Assembly: GCF_000421105.1 (NCBI RefSeq)
Contig: NZ_ATWF01000001.1
Location: forward strand, 1,313,407 to 1,377,406
Length of the DNA stretch: 64,000 nucleotides
Source: Limisalsivibrio acetivorans
Lineage (GTDB): Bacteria; Chrysiogenota; Deferribacteres; Deferribacterales; Geovibrionaceae
Direction: 5' to 3'
Positions 46,961 through 62,335 of the stretch are shown one piece after another. Made by a program: the position numbers and the translations under genes. Within the stretch, counting starts at the first letter, position 1. Each line of letters opens with the position of its first letter. The notes beneath the pieces are model-generated. The model saw nothing but the letters and a program-made list of their open reading frames with translations, had not been told where the DNA came from and ran no database searches.

Positions 46961-47190
46961 AACGCAGGGAACTTTTTAGGGAACAAAGTTCCCCGCACCC
47001 CTCAAAAACCCTTTTTGTGAGCAATTTTAAGGTTGATACATAAAAGGCTTCCAAGGATGGAAGCCCTGAAGGTGGAGTTAAATTGAATTCTATTCAATTT
47101 ATGTAGCCGGAAGTACGAGAGGGCAAAGTTTCTTTGCCCGAACAACAATGGAATTTCCATGAATGGTAAATTCCATAAATAAAATAAAGA
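46961..47190 (+). repeat. Multi-hairpin repeat, copy A
   Basis: About 230 bp with four hairpins in fixed order: GGGAACTTT/AAAGTTCCC at 46967; GGCTTCCA-AGGA-TGGAAGCC at about 47046; AAATTGAAT/ATTCAATTT at about 47080; and GGGCAAAG-TTT-CTTTGCCC at 47121-47139, followed by a GGAATTTCCAT/ATGGTAAATTCC pair. Constant linkers such as CTGAAGG and GCCGGAAGTACGAGAG join them. Three other full copies are at 47191, 61674 and 61945. Function unknown. Confidence 0.85.
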
Positions 47191-47470
47191 CTAAGGGGAA
47201 ATTTTTAGGGAAAACTTTCCCCTTAGAATCCCCTTAAAAACCCATTTTGGGAGCAGTTTTAAGGTTGATGCATAAAAGGCTTCCAAGGATGGAAGCCCTG
47301 AAGGCGGAGTTAAATTGAATTTTATTCAATTTATGTAGCCGGAAGTACGAGAGGGTAAGGTCTCCTTGCCCGAACAACAATGGAATTTCCATGGATGGTA
47401 AATTCCATAGATAAAATCAGACCAGGGAAATTCTCAGGATCACGAATTTCCCTGGTTAATTCAGTGGATA
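47191..47470 (+). repeat. Multi-hairpin repeat, copy B
   Basis: Same order of hairpins as copy A. The first stem is GGGGAAA/TTTCCCC, replacing GGGAAC/GTTCCC. The variable stem at 47353-47371 is GGGTAAGG-TCT-CCTTGCCC: one pair is changed on both sides relative to copy A and one is a T-G wobble. It ends in CCAGGGAAATTC/GAATTTCCCTGG at about 47423-47455 and then joins the flank that adjoins CRISPR array 1, where the IS30 copy has inserted. Confidence 0.85.
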
Positions 47471-47500
47471 TTTTTATGTAAAAAGTTCCCCTGAAACCCC

Positions 47501-48573
47501 CCTGAATTCAACTAGCAAGTGCAACGGGGTCTATAGAGAATAGTATCTGGTTAGGAGTTTTATATCCAGTTGCTTTTCTTGGTCTGTTGTTTAGTTTCTG
47601 CATAATATTCTGAATCTCTATATCATCAACACTTTCAAGCATCCTACTCTTTGGTACATACTGCCTAATGAGTCCGTTTGTATTTTCGTTTATTCCGCGT
47701 TCCCACGAAGCATATGGATGAGCAAAGTAGAATTCAGCCCCTAGTATCTCAGATATTTCGGCATGTCCTGCAAACTCTTTCCCGTTATCGGAAGTGATTG
47801 TATGGACTAGGTGTGATATCGGTTTCAACATTTCTATAACCGCTTTTGTCACCAGTACAGCAGTCTTTCTTTCTACCTTGCGTATAAGTGTCAGATAAGA
47901 CTTCCGCTCAATAAGAGAAACAATCGCCTGCTTGTTCCCTTTTCCTATAACTGTATCCACTTCCCAGTCTCCGAATCTCGCTTTCTCTTCTACAATACTT
48001 GGACGCTGCTCAATGCTTAACTTGCCATGTATCTCTCCTCTGCGTTCATAAACACCATATCGCTTCCTGCGTTTTCTTCGGCAACGCAGGTGAGTATAAA
48101 GTGTTCCACCATGACTTTTATCTTCAAGAATGTGCTGGTAGATACGCTCATGACTTACGTTTATTCCATAATTTTGATTTAGCCAATTGCTCACCTGCTC
48201 AGGGCTCCAGTCTTCACGCAGAAGACGTTCAACAAAATACCATTCAGTTTGTGCAATCCGTCTTGGGACCTTGTCCATTCTTCGTTCAATAGCTTTGCGA
48301 TGAGCTTGCTTTGGGCGATAACCACGACCTCCTGTGTTTCTGCGTAACTCTCGGCTGATGGTAGATTTATGTACTTTAAGCAAATCAGCTATGTCCGTCT
48401 GAGAATGTCCGGTTTTCCTCAGCACATAAATCTGGTACCTTTGTTCACGGGTCAGGTGTGTATAGTTCTTCATTCGGTGCTCCTTTGACGTGGTGGTTAA
48501 AGAGCTACGATGCTAACGCACCTGACCTCTTTTGACCACTACTTAAAAGTTGCACTTAATTATTGAATCCAGG
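47501..48573 (-). mobile_element. IS30-family element, copy 2
   Basis: This is the same 1073-bp element as at 5946-7018, with identical ends. CCC flanks both sides (47498-47500 and 48574-48576). The uninterrupted version of the site survives next to array 2 (AGTTCCCCTGAAACCCC then TTAAAAAC near 59613-59640), which proves the insertion point and the 3-bp duplication. It lies 23 bp from the last repeat of array 1, on the old end, and does not break the array. Confidence 0.96.
47508..48473 (-). CDS. IS30-family transposase
   Basis: A 321-residue transposase, one residue different from the copy at 5953-6918 (Arg in LLREDW here, Leu there). The catalytic motifs FGDWEVDTVIGKG, ITSDNGKEFAGH and ERGINENTNGL are intact. 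Near identity of the two copies points to recent movement within this genome. Confidence 0.95.
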   Translation of the reverse strand: MKNYTHLTREQRYQIYVLRKTGHSQTDIADLLKVHKSTISRELRRNTGGRGYRPKQAHRKAIERRMDKVPRRIAQTEWYFVERLLREDWSPEQVSNWLNQNYGINVSHERIYQHILEDKSHGGTLYTHLRCRRKRRKRYGVYERRGEIHGKLSIEQRPSIVEEKARFGDWEVDTVIGKGNKQAIVSLIERKSYLTLIRKVERKTAVLVTKAVIEMLKPISHLVHTITSDNGKEFAGHAEISEILGAEFYFAHPYASWERGINENTNGLIRQYVPKSRMLESVDDIEIQNIMQKLNNRPRKATGYKTPNQILFSIDPVALAS

Positions 48574-48596
48574 CCCTTAAAAACAAATCTTGATAA

Positions 48597-50965
48597 TGAA
48601 AATACTGCCTGTGCGGCAGTGAACAAATGCTAGATACACATTATGATGGTGTATTTTTTCTAAGCTGCCTGTGCGGCAGTGAACACAAAGACATATTTAG
48701 TCGCAAGCTCGATTTCTTTCTAAGCTGCCTGTGCGGCAGTGAACGAGGATAAACACCTTCATATACTTTTCGATATTTTCTAAGCTACCTGTGCGGCAGT
48801 GAACCGACCGTCAAAGTCGAAATAACAGATGATACATTTCTAAGCTACCTGTGCGGCAGTGAACATGATGTCATACGGCACTGGGCGTACGGGGTGTTTT
48901 CTAAGCTACCTGTGCGGCAGTGAACTAATATCTATGGGCGGAGTAGTAGCATTGTCTTTTCTAAGCTACCTGTGCGGCAGTGAACCGTTTGCCGTTTTTG
49001 CCTTGATAAATATGTGGTTTCTAAGCTACCTGTGCGGCAGTGAACCGAGATCAGCACACCAAAGATCAGCGTGCCAGTTTCTAAGCTACCTGTGCGGCAG
49101 TGAACTCAGGTGCTACAAAATCGGTCGGTGCTGGTAATTTCTAAGCTACCTGTGCGGCAGTGAACCAAATTCCAAGAATTTGTCATCAAACATATCCTTT
49201 CTAAGCTACCTGTGCGGCAGTGAACGAAAAGCGAGGGTGGGAAGAAAGCTAATCTCATTTCTAAGCTACCTGTGCGGCAGTGAACTGTTATTATACCCAG
49301 AACGTTGTCCTTCCCGTTTTCTAAGCTACCTGTGCGGCAGTGAACCTTCAAAAAACTTTGCTAGGCTTGTTGACATTTTTCTAAGCTACCTGTGCGGCAG
49401 TGAACGAGAAAGCAAGCCGAACCCGCTTGCTCAAGCGTTTCTAAGCTACCTGTGCGGCAGTGAACTCATTATAAACTCACCGGCTACACAAGTATCTTTT
49501 CTAAGCTACCTGTGCGGCAGTGAACGCTATATTGTAAAAGCTATGGTTTCATATACATTTCTAAGCTACCTGTGCGGCAGTGAACTTACGTTGTAACTAT
49601 TAATAACACCTATCAGATTTCTAAGCTACCTGTGCGGCAGTGAACTGTTTTAGAAAGCGGTCAAATCTTTTGCGAAGTTTCTAAGCTACCTGTGCGGCAG
49701 TGAACTGCGGATAGGTTCGTTGAAGTAAGTTCCGGTGTTTCTAAGCTACCTGTGCGGCAGTGAACCGTATCCCTTGTTACAACCCTTTGCTATTAAGTTT
49801 CTAAGCTACCTGTGCGGCAGTGAACAGGACCGGAGCTGGAAGGATAGGACCGGAGCTTTTCTAAGCTACCTGTGCGGCAGTGAACGCCCCTGCGGGGCGG
49901 GGCGGGCGCAAAACAAATTTCTAAGCTACCTGTGCGGCAGTGAACAGCTCCGGATTTTGTTGCGAGTGCGACGATATTTTCTAAGCTACCTGTGCGGCAG
50001 TGAACAAGCCTCTTCAATCTCCCAGTAAGCCCCTTTCTTTCTAAGCTACCTGTGCGGCAGTGAACTCGCTGTAATCACTGAAAACAACACCACAGCATTT
50101 CTAAGCTACCTGTGCGGCAGTGAACTATTAGAGATCGCATCTTTTTTACGGTGGAATTTTCTAAGCTACCTGTGCGGCAGTGAACGACATCCCGATCAAG
50201 CTTTTCCCTGTGCCGGTTTTCTAAGCTACCTGTGCGGCAGTGAACGGCACGCCGATCTCAAAGGCGCTGATCTAAGATTTCTAAGCTACCTGTGCGGCAG
50301 TGAACACTAATAGTGAAGAACGCTTTATTGAATATGATTTCTAAGCTACCTGTGCGGCAGTGAACCCCTTCAGCTTTAAGCCGCCCGGCGGTCTTGCTTT
50401 CTAAGCTACCTGTGCGGCAGTGAACTTGAAAAAACTCTTGAAGGGGAGCTTGATAACTTTCTAAGCTACCTGTGCGGCAGTGAACCTCGTCTAATGTCCT
50501 TGCCTGGCTGTCAAAGATTTCTAAGCTACCTGTGCGGCAGTGAACAGAACACGACCACCAGGCAACAATCTTCCAGTTTTCTAAGCTACCTGTGCGGCAG
50601 TGAACTTTTGTCCTGATATACTTCTTCCCACCCTCAATTTCTAAGCTACCTGTGCGGCAGTGAACTGGTATCACAAGATATGGGCGCAGTGCGCTTCTTT
50701 CTAAGCTACCTGTGCGGCAGTGAACTAGCACTCGTACAGCAAAAGCATCTGCCTGCCTTTCTAAGCTACCTGTGCGGCAGTGAACCTAGGCATCATCCAC
50801 CCCCGGAAGATTCATCTTTTCTAAGCTACCTGTGCGGCAGTGAACCGTACCATGAAGGGCCGCCGTCCTTCTGCGCATTTCTAAGCTACCTGTGCGGCAG
50901 TGAACTGCGTAAGCTGTACGAGGGCTGATGCGGTCCATTTCTAAGCTACCTGTGCGGCAGTGAAC
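48597..50965 (-). CRISPR. Type I-F CRISPR array 1 (40 repeats, 39 spacers)
   Basis: Repeats of 28 bp alternate with 32-bp spacers; the fifth spacer is 33 bp. Read on the minus strand the repeat starts GTTCACTGCCGCACAGG and ends AGCTTAGAAA, the standard I-F form with a Cas6f hairpin. The leader is therefore on the high-coordinate side, and the oldest end is at 48597, where the last repeat is degenerate (its first 8 plus-strand bases are TGAAAATA, where the others have TTTCTAAG). The three oldest repeats have CTGCC on the plus strand like array 2; the other 37 have CTACC. That turns one stem pair into a G-U wobble. Four spacers overlap or match spacers of array 2. Confidence 0.98.
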
Positions 50966-51094
50966 AGTTCCCAAAATCGGGCAAACCTATACTACCTATA
51001 CCATATCTAATATTTAGTTGCAAAAACCCTTTTTTTTTCAGGGTTCCCTAAATCACTGATAGGGAACCCTTTAAAAAATGCTCTGAAAAAAGGG
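50966..51094 (-). promoter_or_regulatory. Leader of CRISPR array 1
   Basis: This AT-rich stretch lies between the newest repeat and the end of cas6f. It contains AGGGTTCCCTA and TAGGGAACCCT, a perfect 11-bp inverted repeat (about 51039-51070). That is nested in an outer pair, AACCCTTTTTT... and ...AAAAAAGGGTT, which also frames the array 2 leader. A short GGTAG-containing motif about 20-35 bp from the first repeat is shared with the other leader as well. Confidence 0.7.
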
Positions 51095-51661
51095 TTAGAA
51101 AAGGGGTACTGTGCCCCCTTTACTTAAGCCATACTTATTAAAGCCCCCCTCGCCGGGTTCATTAACACGCTTCTGCTGGATAAAGAGGCGAAAACTGTGC
51201 TCTGTGCTCCCGCTTTTTACATTGATAAAGGGCTTTCTTGTCCTTTTCTCTGCTGAATCGGGGTATTTTTCTCTAGCTTCTTCTTCGGTATAGCCGTGGC
51301 GTTTCATCTGTCTGCGGCGGACTCGCTCCATACTGCTCTTAACTTGAACCCTGCGCACAGCAACATGCTCCGCACCGGAGGGGACAGATTTCACCATCCC
51401 TGCCTGAACGTAGTCACGCATGCCACCCAGCCAGCCTGTCTCCATGAACCTTTTAAGGCTCATCTCTTCCCCGTGGACACGAATGACATCGCCAAGGGGT
51501 GAGCCTGTGTCCTTCACACCTTCCTTAGGAAAGCTGACGGCAAGCTCGGGGCTGTCCTCCTGAACCAAGGCCTTATGAAACCTTGAGAAAACCTTGTTAA
51601 GAACCACCGGAACAGTTACCTCCGAAGGAGGCACCGCCTTTATATCAACATAGTGGGTCAT
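51095..51661 (-). CDS. cas6f: Cas6f (Csy4), crRNA-processing endonuclease
   Basis: A 188-residue endoribonuclease that cuts the pre-crRNA at the base of each repeat hairpin and stays bound to it. The catalytic His is in VFSRFHKALV (about residue 29). The arginine-rich helix MERVRRRQMKRHGYTEEEAR grips the hairpin, and the C-terminus ends in the family signature GGFNKYGLSKGGTVPLF. Length is normal for Csy4. AGGAG precedes the ATG; csy3 ends 3 bp upstream. It is the last cas gene of the effector operon. Confidence 0.95.
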   Translation of the reverse strand: MTHYVDIKAVPPSEVTVPVVLNKVFSRFHKALVQEDSPELAVSFPKEGVKDTGSPLGDVIRVHGEEMSLKRFMETGWLGGMRDYVQAGMVKSVPSGAEHVAVRRVQVKSSMERVRRRQMKRHGYTEEEAREKYPDSAEKRTRKPFINVKSGSTEHSFRLFIQQKRVNEPGEGGFNKYGLSKGGTVPLF

Positions 51662-59433: not shown

Positions 59434-59649
59434 ACAAGCCTCCAACCCTTCAATTATTACACAGGTTACAATATTTTAAAGAGAATTGCACATCACGTAA
59501 ATATGTAGAAAAGTTGGTATGAATTTCATTCAGACGAAGTTTAGTTCACATCCTCGAAATTCTCAGGATGATGAATTTTCCAGATTAATTCAGAAGAAAT
59601 TTTTATGTAAAAAGTTCCCCTGAAACCCCTTAAAAACAAATCTTGATAA

Positions 59650-61479
59650 TGAAAATACTGCCTGTGCGGCAGTGAACCTTTGAGGTAAGCAAGTCCAGCT
59701 GCGCCATCCTTTCTAAGCTGCCTGTGCGGCAGTGAACTGCAAGGGCGGAACTAGCCCGCACCGGAGACTGTTTCTAAGCTGCCTGTGCGGCAGTGAACCC
59801 CTGTATGTAAGACGGGGTTGTGATGGAATTTTTCTAAGCTGCCTGTGCGGCAGTGAACCATATTGATTCCCGCATGATGTCAGCCAAATATTTCTAAGCT
59901 GCCTGTGCGGCAGTGAACTAGCCTCCTCCTCTGCTCGGTCCGACGTATCCTTTCTAAGCTGCCTGTGCGGCAGTGAACCAAAATCGGTCGGTGCAGGAAG
60001 TGACTGTTCATTTCTAAGCTGCCTGTGCGGCAGTGAACGTATTATGTAGTCCTCTTGGTTCGTCCTCGGGTTTCTAAGCTGCCTGTGCGGCAGTGAACCC
60101 AGAGCTTCCCCAGCAGGCTTAATTATGTTATTTCTAAGCTGCCTGTGCGGCAGTGAACACGGGAAAAACGTCTGGTAATGTAATATCTATTTTCTAAGCT
60201 GCCTGTGCGGCAGTGAACCTCTCATATGGTTTAAACACAGATAAGCGGATTTTCTAAGCTGCCTGTGCGGCAGTGAACTGCGACAAAAAAAACGGAGGAA
60301 ACATCATGACTTTCTAAGCTGCCTGTGCGGCAGTGAACGCAGGACTTCAAGAGATGATCCGCAGGAGAGCTTTCTAAGCTGCCTGTGCGGCAGTGAACTC
60401 TTCAAGTGTCGTGTGCAGTATCTTTTGATATTTCTAAGCTGCCTGTGCGGCAGTGAACAGCCGGAAATAACCGAGGCTCTTGAGTGTGCATTTCTAAGCT
60501 GCCTGTGCGGCAGTGAACGCATCCTTACGTGTGAGAAAGCGATTTTTACTTTTCTAAGCTGCCTGTGCGGCAGTGAACGGATATAAAGGTTGTCTTTTGC
60601 GACACAAAATTTTCTAAGCTGCCTGTGCGGCAGTGAACCAAAGGTTGATCTCAGGCATGCTAATCTCATATTTCTAAGCTGCCTGTGCGGCAGTGAACAA
60701 TACACAAGAGGAGAAAACCCCGGCAATAAGTTTCTAAGCTGCCTGTGCGGCAGTGAACGAAGCCGTATAGTTTTGCGATTACGTGCTTCGTTTCTAAGCT
60801 GCCTGTGCGGCAGTGAACACACTGAACTCGGTTATAGTGCTGAAGAAGTAATTTCTAAGCTGCCTGTGCGGCAGTGAACTACTATCCGCTTCGTGATAAT
60901 CTATATCGCCGTTTCTAAGCTGCCTGTGCGGCAGTGAACGAGGTCGGCACCGCTTAGGTTAGCGCCTTCAATTTCTAAGCTGCCTGTGCGGCAGTGAACA
61001 AAGGCGCTAATTTCTGGTGCGCTAATATCAATTTCTAAGCTGCCTGTGCGGCAGTGAACAGAGGCGTTGATCTCAGACATGCTAATTTAAATTTCTAAGC
61101 TGCCTGTGCGGCAGTGAACGACATACCGATTAAGCTCTTCCCCGTGCCAGTTTTCTAAGCTGCCTGTGCGGCAGTGAACGACAGAAATTTCAATTTGAGC
61201 AATTTTTTTTATTTCTAAGCTGCCTGTGCGGCAGTGAACATGCGGTCCAGGTTATACACCCCACGCCCAACTTTCTAAGCTGCCTGTGCGGCAGTGAACA
61301 GTCTCTTTAAGAGTTGTGATGCCTGCACAGCTTTCTAAGCTGCCTGTGCGGCAGTGAACCCGGCGGTCTTGCGGTGGCGTTTCCCGCCATTTTTCTAAGC
61401 TGCCTGTGCGGCAGTGAACGATACGGAAAGTTCATTACGATATCTCGTAGCTTTCTAAGCTGCCTGTGCGGCAGTGAAC
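59650..61479 (-). CRISPR. Type I-F CRISPR array 2 (31 repeats, 30 spacers)
   Basis: Repeats of 28 bp alternate with 32-bp spacers; the second and twentieth are 33 bp. All repeats have CTGCC on the plus strand, giving a fully paired Cas6f hairpin. The oldest end is at 59650; its repeat is degenerate in exactly the same way as that of array 1, and about 95 bp of flank (from 59557) match the flank of array 1 apart from its IS30 insertion. The arrays therefore descend from one. The leader is on the high-coordinate side. Several spacers come from genes coding for pentapeptide repeats. Confidence 0.98.
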
Positions 61480-61630
61480 CGTTCATGAATACTCATAGCT
61501 ACCTGTGAATATTACCATAGTATAAATAAAAGAGCAAAAACCCTTTTTTCAAGAGACTCCGTAAGTAACTGATAAACAGCGCTTGAAAAAATAATTAAAA
61601 AAAAGGGTTAAAGGCAAAAGCATTCTTTCT
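61480..61630 (-). promoter_or_regulatory. Leader of CRISPR array 2
   Basis: AT-rich. It shares the outer inverted repeat AAAAACCCTTTTTTCA... and ...AAAAAAGGGTTA with the array 1 leader, though the inner part differs. At 61495-61505, AGCTACCTGTG repeats 11 bases of the array 1 form of the repeat and may be a leader-anchoring motif for Cas1 or a relic of it. Confidence 0.65.
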
Positions 61631-61673: not shown

Positions 61674-61940
61674 CGGCAGGGAACTTTTTAGGGAACAAAG
61701 TTCCCCGCACCCCTCAAAAACTCACGTTGTAGATAACTACTAAGGTCGCTACTCAACAGGCTTCCATGGATGGAAGCCCTGAAGGCGGAGTTAAATTGAA
61801 TTTTATTCGATTTATGTAGCCGGAAGTACGAGAGAGCGGGGTAACCCCGCTCGAACAACAATGGAATTTCCATGAATGGTAAATTCCATAGATAAAATCA
61901 GACCAGGGAAATTCTCAGGATGATGAATTTCCCAAATTAA
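61674..61940 (+). repeat. Multi-hairpin repeat, copy C
   Basis: Same build as copies A and B. The variable stem at 61834-61852 is GAGCGGGG-TAA-CCCCGCTC: four of its eight pairs differ from copy A, each changed on both sides, while length and linkers are constant. The first linker differs (ACTCACGTTGTAGATAACTA...) from copies A and B but is shared with copy D. Confidence 0.85.
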
Positions 61941-61944
61941 TTAA

Positions 61945-62190
61945 AAAAAGATCGCAGGGAACTTTTTGGGGAACAAAGTTCCCCGCACCCCTCAAAAACT
62001 CACGCTGTAGATAACTACTAAGGTCGCTACTCAACAGGCTTCCATGGATGGAAGCCCTGAAGGCGGAGTTAAATTGAATTTTATTCAATTTATGTAGCCG
62101 GAAGTACGAGAGGGCAAAGTTTCTTTGCCCGAACAACAATGGAATTTCCATGGATGGTAAATTCCATAAATAAAATAAAGACTAAGGGGA
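61945..62190 (+). repeat. Multi-hairpin repeat, copy D
   Basis: Same build. The variable stem at 62112-62130 is identical to that of copy A (GGGCAAAG-TTT-CTTTGCCC). The copy is followed by the same AAGGGGAAA.../...TTTCCCCTT hairpin as lies between A and B, so C-D and A-B look like separate tandem pairs, one on each side of the CRISPR locus. Confidence 0.85.
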
Positions 62191-62335
62191 AATTTTTAGG
62201 GAAAACTTTCCCCTTAGAATCCCCTTAAAAACCCATTTTGGGATTTTTATAAAGGTTGAAGCGAATAAAGCCAACCCGGATGTTGGCTCTGAAGGCGAAG
62301 CTGAATTTTCCAGATTAATTCAGATGTGGTTTAGT
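62191..62335 (+). repeat. Multi-hairpin repeat, partial copy E
   Basis: The first linker (AAAAACCCATTTTGGGA, AAGGTTGA) and the second hairpin are present, but the hairpin is now GCCAAC-CCGGAT-GTTGGC followed by TCTGAAGGCGAAGCTGAA. The stem is wholly different from GGCTTCCA/TGGAAGCC and still pairs. The rest is missing. No gene is seen up to 62507. Confidence 0.65.

What the first reader, a model, noticed from the sequence alone, without database searches (positions are those of the whole stretch)
48657..50965. A repeat mutation swept through array 1 after its third repeat
The three oldest repeats carry CTGCC like array 2; the remaining 37 carry CTACC. New repeats are copied from the leader-end repeat, so one point mutation at the leader end was inherited by every later addition. 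It changes a G-C stem pair to G-U in the crRNA hairpin, and Cas6f evidently still tolerates it. It also dates the split between the arrays: only two or three spacers of array 1 predate the change.
Basis: partly seen in the sequence, partly recalled or inferred. Interest (0 to 1): 0.5.

Follow-up and report, generated by a model that had tools for sequence, protein, structure and literature searches.

The report
Inherited repeat mutation in CRISPR array
In one of two CRISPR arrays of a bacterium nearly every repeat carries the same single-letter change because each new repeat is copied from the previous one; this is a known kind of trace, and here it does not date the split of the two arrays, because their old ends appear to have been exchanged.

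Summary
Array 1 (type I-F, crRNA on the minus strand, leader from 50966) has 40 repeats: 37 leader-side ones with C18T (CTACC on plus), two older ones with C18, and a degenerate terminal repeat (48597-48624) with an intact stem. Array 2 has 31, all C18. Copying of one leader-end mutation is the accepted explanation, and C18T does turn G8-C18 into G8·U18 (hairpin -7.5 to -5.5 kcal/mol). Two inferences fail or weaken. First, both arrays share the same degenerate terminal repeat and trailer, while their leaders are only 70% identical and other genera have two arrays with different ends; so the arrays split long before, the distal end was exchanged later, and the boundary may be a crossover. New here: stem changes rarely become the template in I-F (no run in 78 surveyed arrays, 28 stem singletons), yet T18 runs occur in 3 of 17 arrays of this family and one array of a distant genome is all T18. 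Ordinary in kind, modestly interesting in detail.

The parts
48777..50965 (-). 37 leader-side repeats of array 1 with C18T (G8·U18 in the crRNA hairpin) and their spacers
   Evidence: spacers unique
48657..48744 (-). Two older C18 repeats of array 1 (48657-48684, 48717-48744)
48745..48776 (-). Spacer 37: the boundary between C18 and T18 repeats (mutation point or crossover)
48597..48624 (-). Degenerate terminal repeat of array 1, identical to that of array 2 (six shared substitutions)
48574..48596 (-). Trailer of array 1, 23 nt identical to array 2's trailer, up to the IS insertion
   Evidence: a 25-base string over terminal repeat and trailer found at only 2 places in the genome with up to 3 mismatches
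47501..48573 (-). IS30-family element inserted in the trailer of array 1, 3-bp target duplication CCC
   Evidence: ends read; transposase NF033563
47427..47500 (-). Continuation of the trailer homology beyond the IS (66/74 to array 2), inside a dispersed repeat
50966..51094 (-). Leader of array 1
   Evidence: 0.70 identical to leader 2
51095..51661 (-). cas6f (csy4), the only match in the genome at E <= 0.001
   Evidence: TIGR02563
51665..59445 (-). csy3, csy2, csy1, cas3f, cas1f
59650..61479 (-). Array 2: 31 repeats, all C18, terminal repeat 59650-59677
61480..61609 (-). Leader of array 2

Best explanation
Array 1 is an ordinary type I-F CRISPR array. Once, a C-to-T change at repeat position 18 arose in a repeat that then lay next to the leader. 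Each later spacer insertion duplicated that repeat, so all 37 leader-side repeats carry it (pattern shown, mechanism inferred). Of the 39 crRNAs of array 1, the 36 from spacers 1-36 should end in a hairpin with a G8·U18 wobble, about 2 kcal/mol weaker but still fully paired, which Cas6f most likely still binds and cuts (inferred). Separately, the distal end of array 1 (trailer, terminal repeat, possibly the two C18 repeats) has been exchanged with array 2 by recombination (shared sequence shown, event inferred). The boundary is therefore either where the mutation happened (about 0.55) or the crossover itself (about 0.35), and it cannot be read as a clock for the split of the two arrays.
For: Contiguous leader-side run with unique spacers and one variable site. 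In Legionella I-F an emptied array refilled with the sequence of the one repeat left (PMC7056967, section 15 read). Stretches of repeat variants were read the same way in Escherichia/Salmonella (PMC2886076, passages). Hairpin energies. Position 18 tested in Pectobacterium: C18A abolishes targeting, C18A/G8U restores it (PMC3630108, passages). All-T18 array of 16 repeats beside cas1-cas6f in G224. Exchange of distal ends: same terminal repeat and trailer, string at only these two places, leaders 0.70 identical, and terminal repeats and trailers that differ between the two arrays in 5 of 5 relatives where both distal ends could be read (G001, G004, G007; G002, G011).
Against: No second genome of the genus was at hand (none among the relatives; may leave out near records), so the event cannot be polarised directly. 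The distal spacers of array 1 are not found in array 2, so no spacer shows that the exchange reached the C18 repeats. In 78 other I-F arrays no stem change became a run, so a stem mutation spreading this far is unusual and may carry a cost. No expression data.
Confidence: 0.8

Rival explanations
1. The C18/T18 boundary is a recombination junction: a distal piece of an array-2-type array (two C18 repeats, terminal repeat, trailer) was joined to an array 1 that was already T18. The mutation then has no known place in the order of spacers.
For: Arrays 1 and 2 share the degenerate terminal repeat and trailer but not the leader. The outer edge of the shared stretch lies in a dispersed repeat with dozens of copies, a natural crossover substrate. 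Relatives have mosaic arrays: G008 changes sites 12, 14 and 18 at one boundary, and 6 of 18 switches in 17 family arrays change more than one site, against 12 of 125 in the 78 survey arrays.
Against: A crossover inside the terminal repeat, whose first 20 bases equal a normal repeat, explains the shared end equally well. The spacers beside the two C18 repeats are absent from array 2.
Confidence: 0.35
2. One reading: arrays 1 and 2 arose by duplication of one array and the mutation came two or three spacers later, so it dates the split.
For: Shared terminal repeat and trailer; the distal repeats of both arrays are C18.
Against: Leaders 0.70 identical while the trailer is identical. Two arrays flanking the same cas operon occur in two other genera with their own leaders and ends. 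Three look-alike spacer pairs lie in the same order (array 1 numbers 10, 13, 31; array 2 numbers 2, 6, 25; scores 13, 19.5, 16.5 against a best of 12 among 2340 shuffled pairs), which suggests side-by-side growth through the T18 period; weak, since the order alone arises by chance 1 time in 6 and one pair barely exceeds the shuffles.
Confidence: 0.05
3. T18 is kept by selection: a weaker hairpin lowers the crRNA output of array 1 relative to array 2, or helps against repeat-mimicking phage RNAs.
For: T18 runs in 3 of 17 arrays of this family against 0 of 78 survey arrays (Fisher p 0.005, post hoc, relatedness not corrected); weaker hairpin. Phage RNAs that mimic I-F repeats and occupy Cas6f exist (PMC10651486, passages).
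Against: In one relative T18 was abandoned after 13 additions. Near-neutral copying predicts the same pattern. No functional data.
Confidence: 0.08

Closest known systems
Stretches of repeat variants in Escherichia/Salmonella CRISPR arrays (PMC2886076, passages)
   Same: Runs of one repeat variant, read as duplication of the adjacent repeat
   Different: Here the variant is in the hairpin stem and fills 37 of 40 repeats
Replenished type I-F arrays of Legionella pneumophila (PMC7056967, section 15)
   Same: Same 28-base repeat (the Lens chromosomal consensus equals the C18 form here); new repeats copy the repeat left at the leader
   Different: There the change is at the last base of the repeat after array collapse; here position 18 in the stem, with older C18 repeats still present
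C18A and C18A/G8U repeat mutants of Pectobacterium I-F (PMC3630108, passages)
   Same: Same nucleotide position of the repeat
   Different: Engineered; C18U is not among the mutants in the passages I saw
Multiple arrays from duplicated array fragments (PMC12814883, section 13)
   Same: Arrays of one genome sharing distal pieces by duplication of fragments
   Different: Here the shared piece is the terminal repeat and trailer, with no shared spacer

Membership tests
CRISPR-Cas type I-F (I-F1) | cas1f, cas3f, csy1, csy2, csy3, cas6f | tested here: met
   each above the curated cut-off of its I-F model
CRISPR-Cas type I-F (I-F1) | 28-base repeat with CTGCC/GGCAG stem and 32-base spacers | tested here: met
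   in array 1 the 3' arm is GGTAG in 37 of 40 repeats, predicted still paired
CRISPR-Cas type I-F (I-F1) | Cas6f with the catalytic and base-reading residues | tested here: met
   H29, R104, Q106 of the window protein align with H29, R102, Q104 of a solved Csy4; the roles of these residues are recalled, from no call
CRISPR-Cas type I-F (I-F1) | PAM and working interference | not tested
   protospacers were not searched
Leader-end inheritance of a repeat variant | Variant contiguous up to the leader, older form distal, spacers unique | tested here: met
Leader-end inheritance of a repeat variant | Order of the forms never mixed | tested here: inconclusive
   met in the window; mixed in G001 and, at other repeat sites, in 4 of 78 survey arrays (L060, L097, L098, L109); G008 changes three sites at once

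The most novel reading that the evidence does not exclude
In this bacterial family repeat position 18 acts as a recurrent two-state site: whole arrays move between G8-C18 and G8·U18 by mutation and by recombination between arrays. Because one Cas6f serves both, the state of an array sets how well its crRNAs mature, so one base tunes the weight of an entire immune memory.
Probability: 0.08. Interest if true: 0.55.

Novelty: new member of a known kind. Interest (0 to 1): 0.25.

Why it matters
It is a natural tag on array history, but also a warning: a repeat-variant boundary can be a crossover, so it should not be used as a clock without checking leaders, terminal repeats and trailers. The stem position makes a natural test of how much hairpin weakening Cas6f accepts in the cell, with an internal control (array 2) served by the same enzyme.

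Tried and rejected
Whole-array duplication as source of the two arrays: rejected because the leaders differ while the trailers are identical. Internal duplication of units as cause of the T18 run: rejected, 39 of 39 spacers unique. The flank homology as mere chance placement of a dispersed repeat: the dispersed part begins about 9 bases into the trailer (copies read), and the stretch before it plus the end of the terminal repeat occurs at only two places, so chance is unlikely. Leader alignments as a tree: apart from the cas6f-side leaders of G001, G004 and G007 (0.75-0.85) most values sit near 0.6-0.7 and resolve little. Searches suggested that T18 runs exist only in this family; (369 genomes of the class of G069, drawn evenly; 400 asked) then found 3 genomes with T18: G224 with 18 matches, G334 and G243 with one each, so that claim was dropped. 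I did not count how many of those 369 genomes carry I-F at all. Paper searches aimed at Cas6f stem mutants gave little; the useful paper surfaced and was read in passages. The Csy4 specificity paper I recalled and Mitrofanov 2025 on repeat mutations (seen only as an entry in a reference list) are not held and were not read. Passages of PMC9602844 and PMC4466440 were seen; the first gave nothing on the stem, the second describes degenerate terminal repeats as usual. One search used 'Deferribacteres' as a guess; no call named the organism.

Full report
What is there. The window holds a complete type I-F system on the minus strand: array 2 (61479-59650), cas1f, cas3f, csy1, csy2, csy3, cas6f, array 1 (50965-48597); all six proteins exceed the curated cut-offs of their I-F models. 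Array 1 has 40 repeats. In the crRNA sense the consensus is GTTCACTGCCGCACAGGCAGCTTAGAAA; the 37 repeats nearest the leader have T instead of C at position 18, the next two have C, and the terminal repeat (48597-48624) has six other differences in its last eight bases but an intact stem. Array 2 has 31 repeats, all C18. The whole genome holds 69 repeats that fit the search pattern, all in these two arrays, and one cas6f at E <= 0.001. All spacers are unique, 39 of 39 and 30 of 30.

What the change does. Position 18 pairs with G8 in the 5-bp stem read by Cas6f. C18T turns the pair into G·U; the predicted hairpin goes from -7.5 to -5.5 kcal/mol and keeps all five pairs, whereas G8A would leave two. 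With standard processing the 3' hairpin of a crRNA comes from the repeat distal to the spacer, so 36 of 39 crRNAs of array 1 should carry the wobble (inference). In Pectobacterium, C18A abolished targeting and C18A/G8U restored it, so pairing rather than the base itself is what counts there (PMC3630108, passages). C18U is not among the mutants in those passages.

How it arose. Copying of the leader-end repeat is the accepted explanation of such runs: it was inferred from stretches of repeat variants in Escherichia and Salmonella (PMC2886076, passages) and seen directly in Legionella I-F, where an emptied array refilled with copies of the one repeat left (PMC7056967, section 15 read). I see no better account for 37 contiguous identical changes beside unique spacers.

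Why it does not date the arrays. The terminal repeats of the two arrays share the same six substitutions, followed by 23 identical trailer bases up to an IS30-family element that split the trailer of array 1; the homology continues beyond it at 66 of 74 bases, inside a dispersed repeat. A 25-base string over terminal repeat and trailer occurs at only these two places within 3 mismatches. Yet the two leaders are only 0.70 identical over 130 bases, no more than leaders of different genera reach (up to 0.72). Relatives G001, G004, G007 (one genus) and G002, G011 (another) also have an array on each side of the cas operon, and in all five the two terminal repeats and trailers differ from each other; in G004 and G011 the last cas6f-side repeat found is of consensus form, and in G002 that array has only two repeats. 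In G008 the cas6f-side array runs off the end of its contig, so its end could not be read. The cas1-side arrays of G001, G004 and G007 share one trailer among themselves. So the two-array layout is old, and the common end in this genome looks like a later exchange. The crossover may lie anywhere between the terminal repeat and the C18/T18 boundary; the boundary is one of the possible places. The distal spacers of array 1 are not in array 2, which neither proves nor excludes it.

Mixed order in relatives. Reading from old to new after the degenerate terminal repeat, the cas1-side array of G001 goes: one repeat with G13, one with T18, three with G13, five plain, 13 with T18, 45 plain, with 68 of 68 spacers unique. 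The cas1-side array of G008 passes from a GGATA loop with C18 (7 repeats) to a GCACA loop with T18 (14 repeats), three sites at one boundary, which one point mutation cannot do. Over the 17 family arrays (last repeat of each dropped) 6 of 18 switches between neighbours involve more than one site; in the 78 survey arrays it is 12 of 125. Runs of two or more flanked on both sides by the consensus base also occur at non-stem sites in 4 of 78 survey arrays (L060, L097, L098, L109); in L060 the spacers there are near-duplicates, so that one may be a unit duplication.

How unusual a stem change is. All 78 leader-end repeats have CTGCC/GGCAG. With the last repeat of each array dropped (3,457 left), stem positions show 28 single deviants and no run of two or more, other positions 53 singles and 10 runs in 8 arrays (Fisher p 0.028). 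Four of the stem singles are C18T. Of 50 of these loci given, 49 whole genomes could be searched; they hold five T18 repeats in four genomes, none next to another. In the own phylum, 3 of 50 genomes have T18: own 37, G001 14, G008 14; in addition the degenerate last repeat of one G002 array has T at 18 but does not fit that pattern. T18 runs are in 3 of 17 family arrays against 0 of 78 survey arrays (Fisher p 0.005), a post hoc count with no correction for relatedness. Of a further 369 genomes (class of G069, the genome of a Pseudomonas locus, L072), 3 have T18, two as single repeats and G224 with 18 matches; its array next to a full I-F operon has 16 repeats, all T18, in the 20 kb read. So T18 is rare, recurrent, and apparently workable as the only form.

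Verdict. The pattern is real and its mechanism known. What is worth keeping is the rarity of a propagated stem change and the mosaic nature of arrays in this family.

Noticed in passing
window 46963-47548, 59556-59645, 61676-62307: A dispersed intergenic repeat family; pieces of it match 46 and 65 places in the genome in two searches, here also as neighbouring copies 232 and 278 bp apart.
   Followed up: partly
window 47501-48573: IS30-family element with imperfect terminal repeats and a 3-bp target duplication (CCC) in the trailer of array 1.
   Followed up: yes
window 49106-50397 and 59979-61391: Three look-alike spacer pairs between the arrays (array 1 numbers 10, 13, 31; array 2 numbers 2, 6, 25), in the same order, as if both arrays sampled related invaders at the same time.
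   Followed up: partly
L033 2075-8319 (G007): Between two I-F arrays this relative has a type I-Fv protein (Cas7fv), a shorter Cas3, two Csy4 genes and a 179-aa Cas1f fragment, as if an I-F1 cassette had been replaced between its arrays.
   Followed up: partly
L143 9275-10624 (G008): The array beside cas1 lies in the opposite orientation, leader next to cas1, with three repeat types in blocks.
   Followed up: partly
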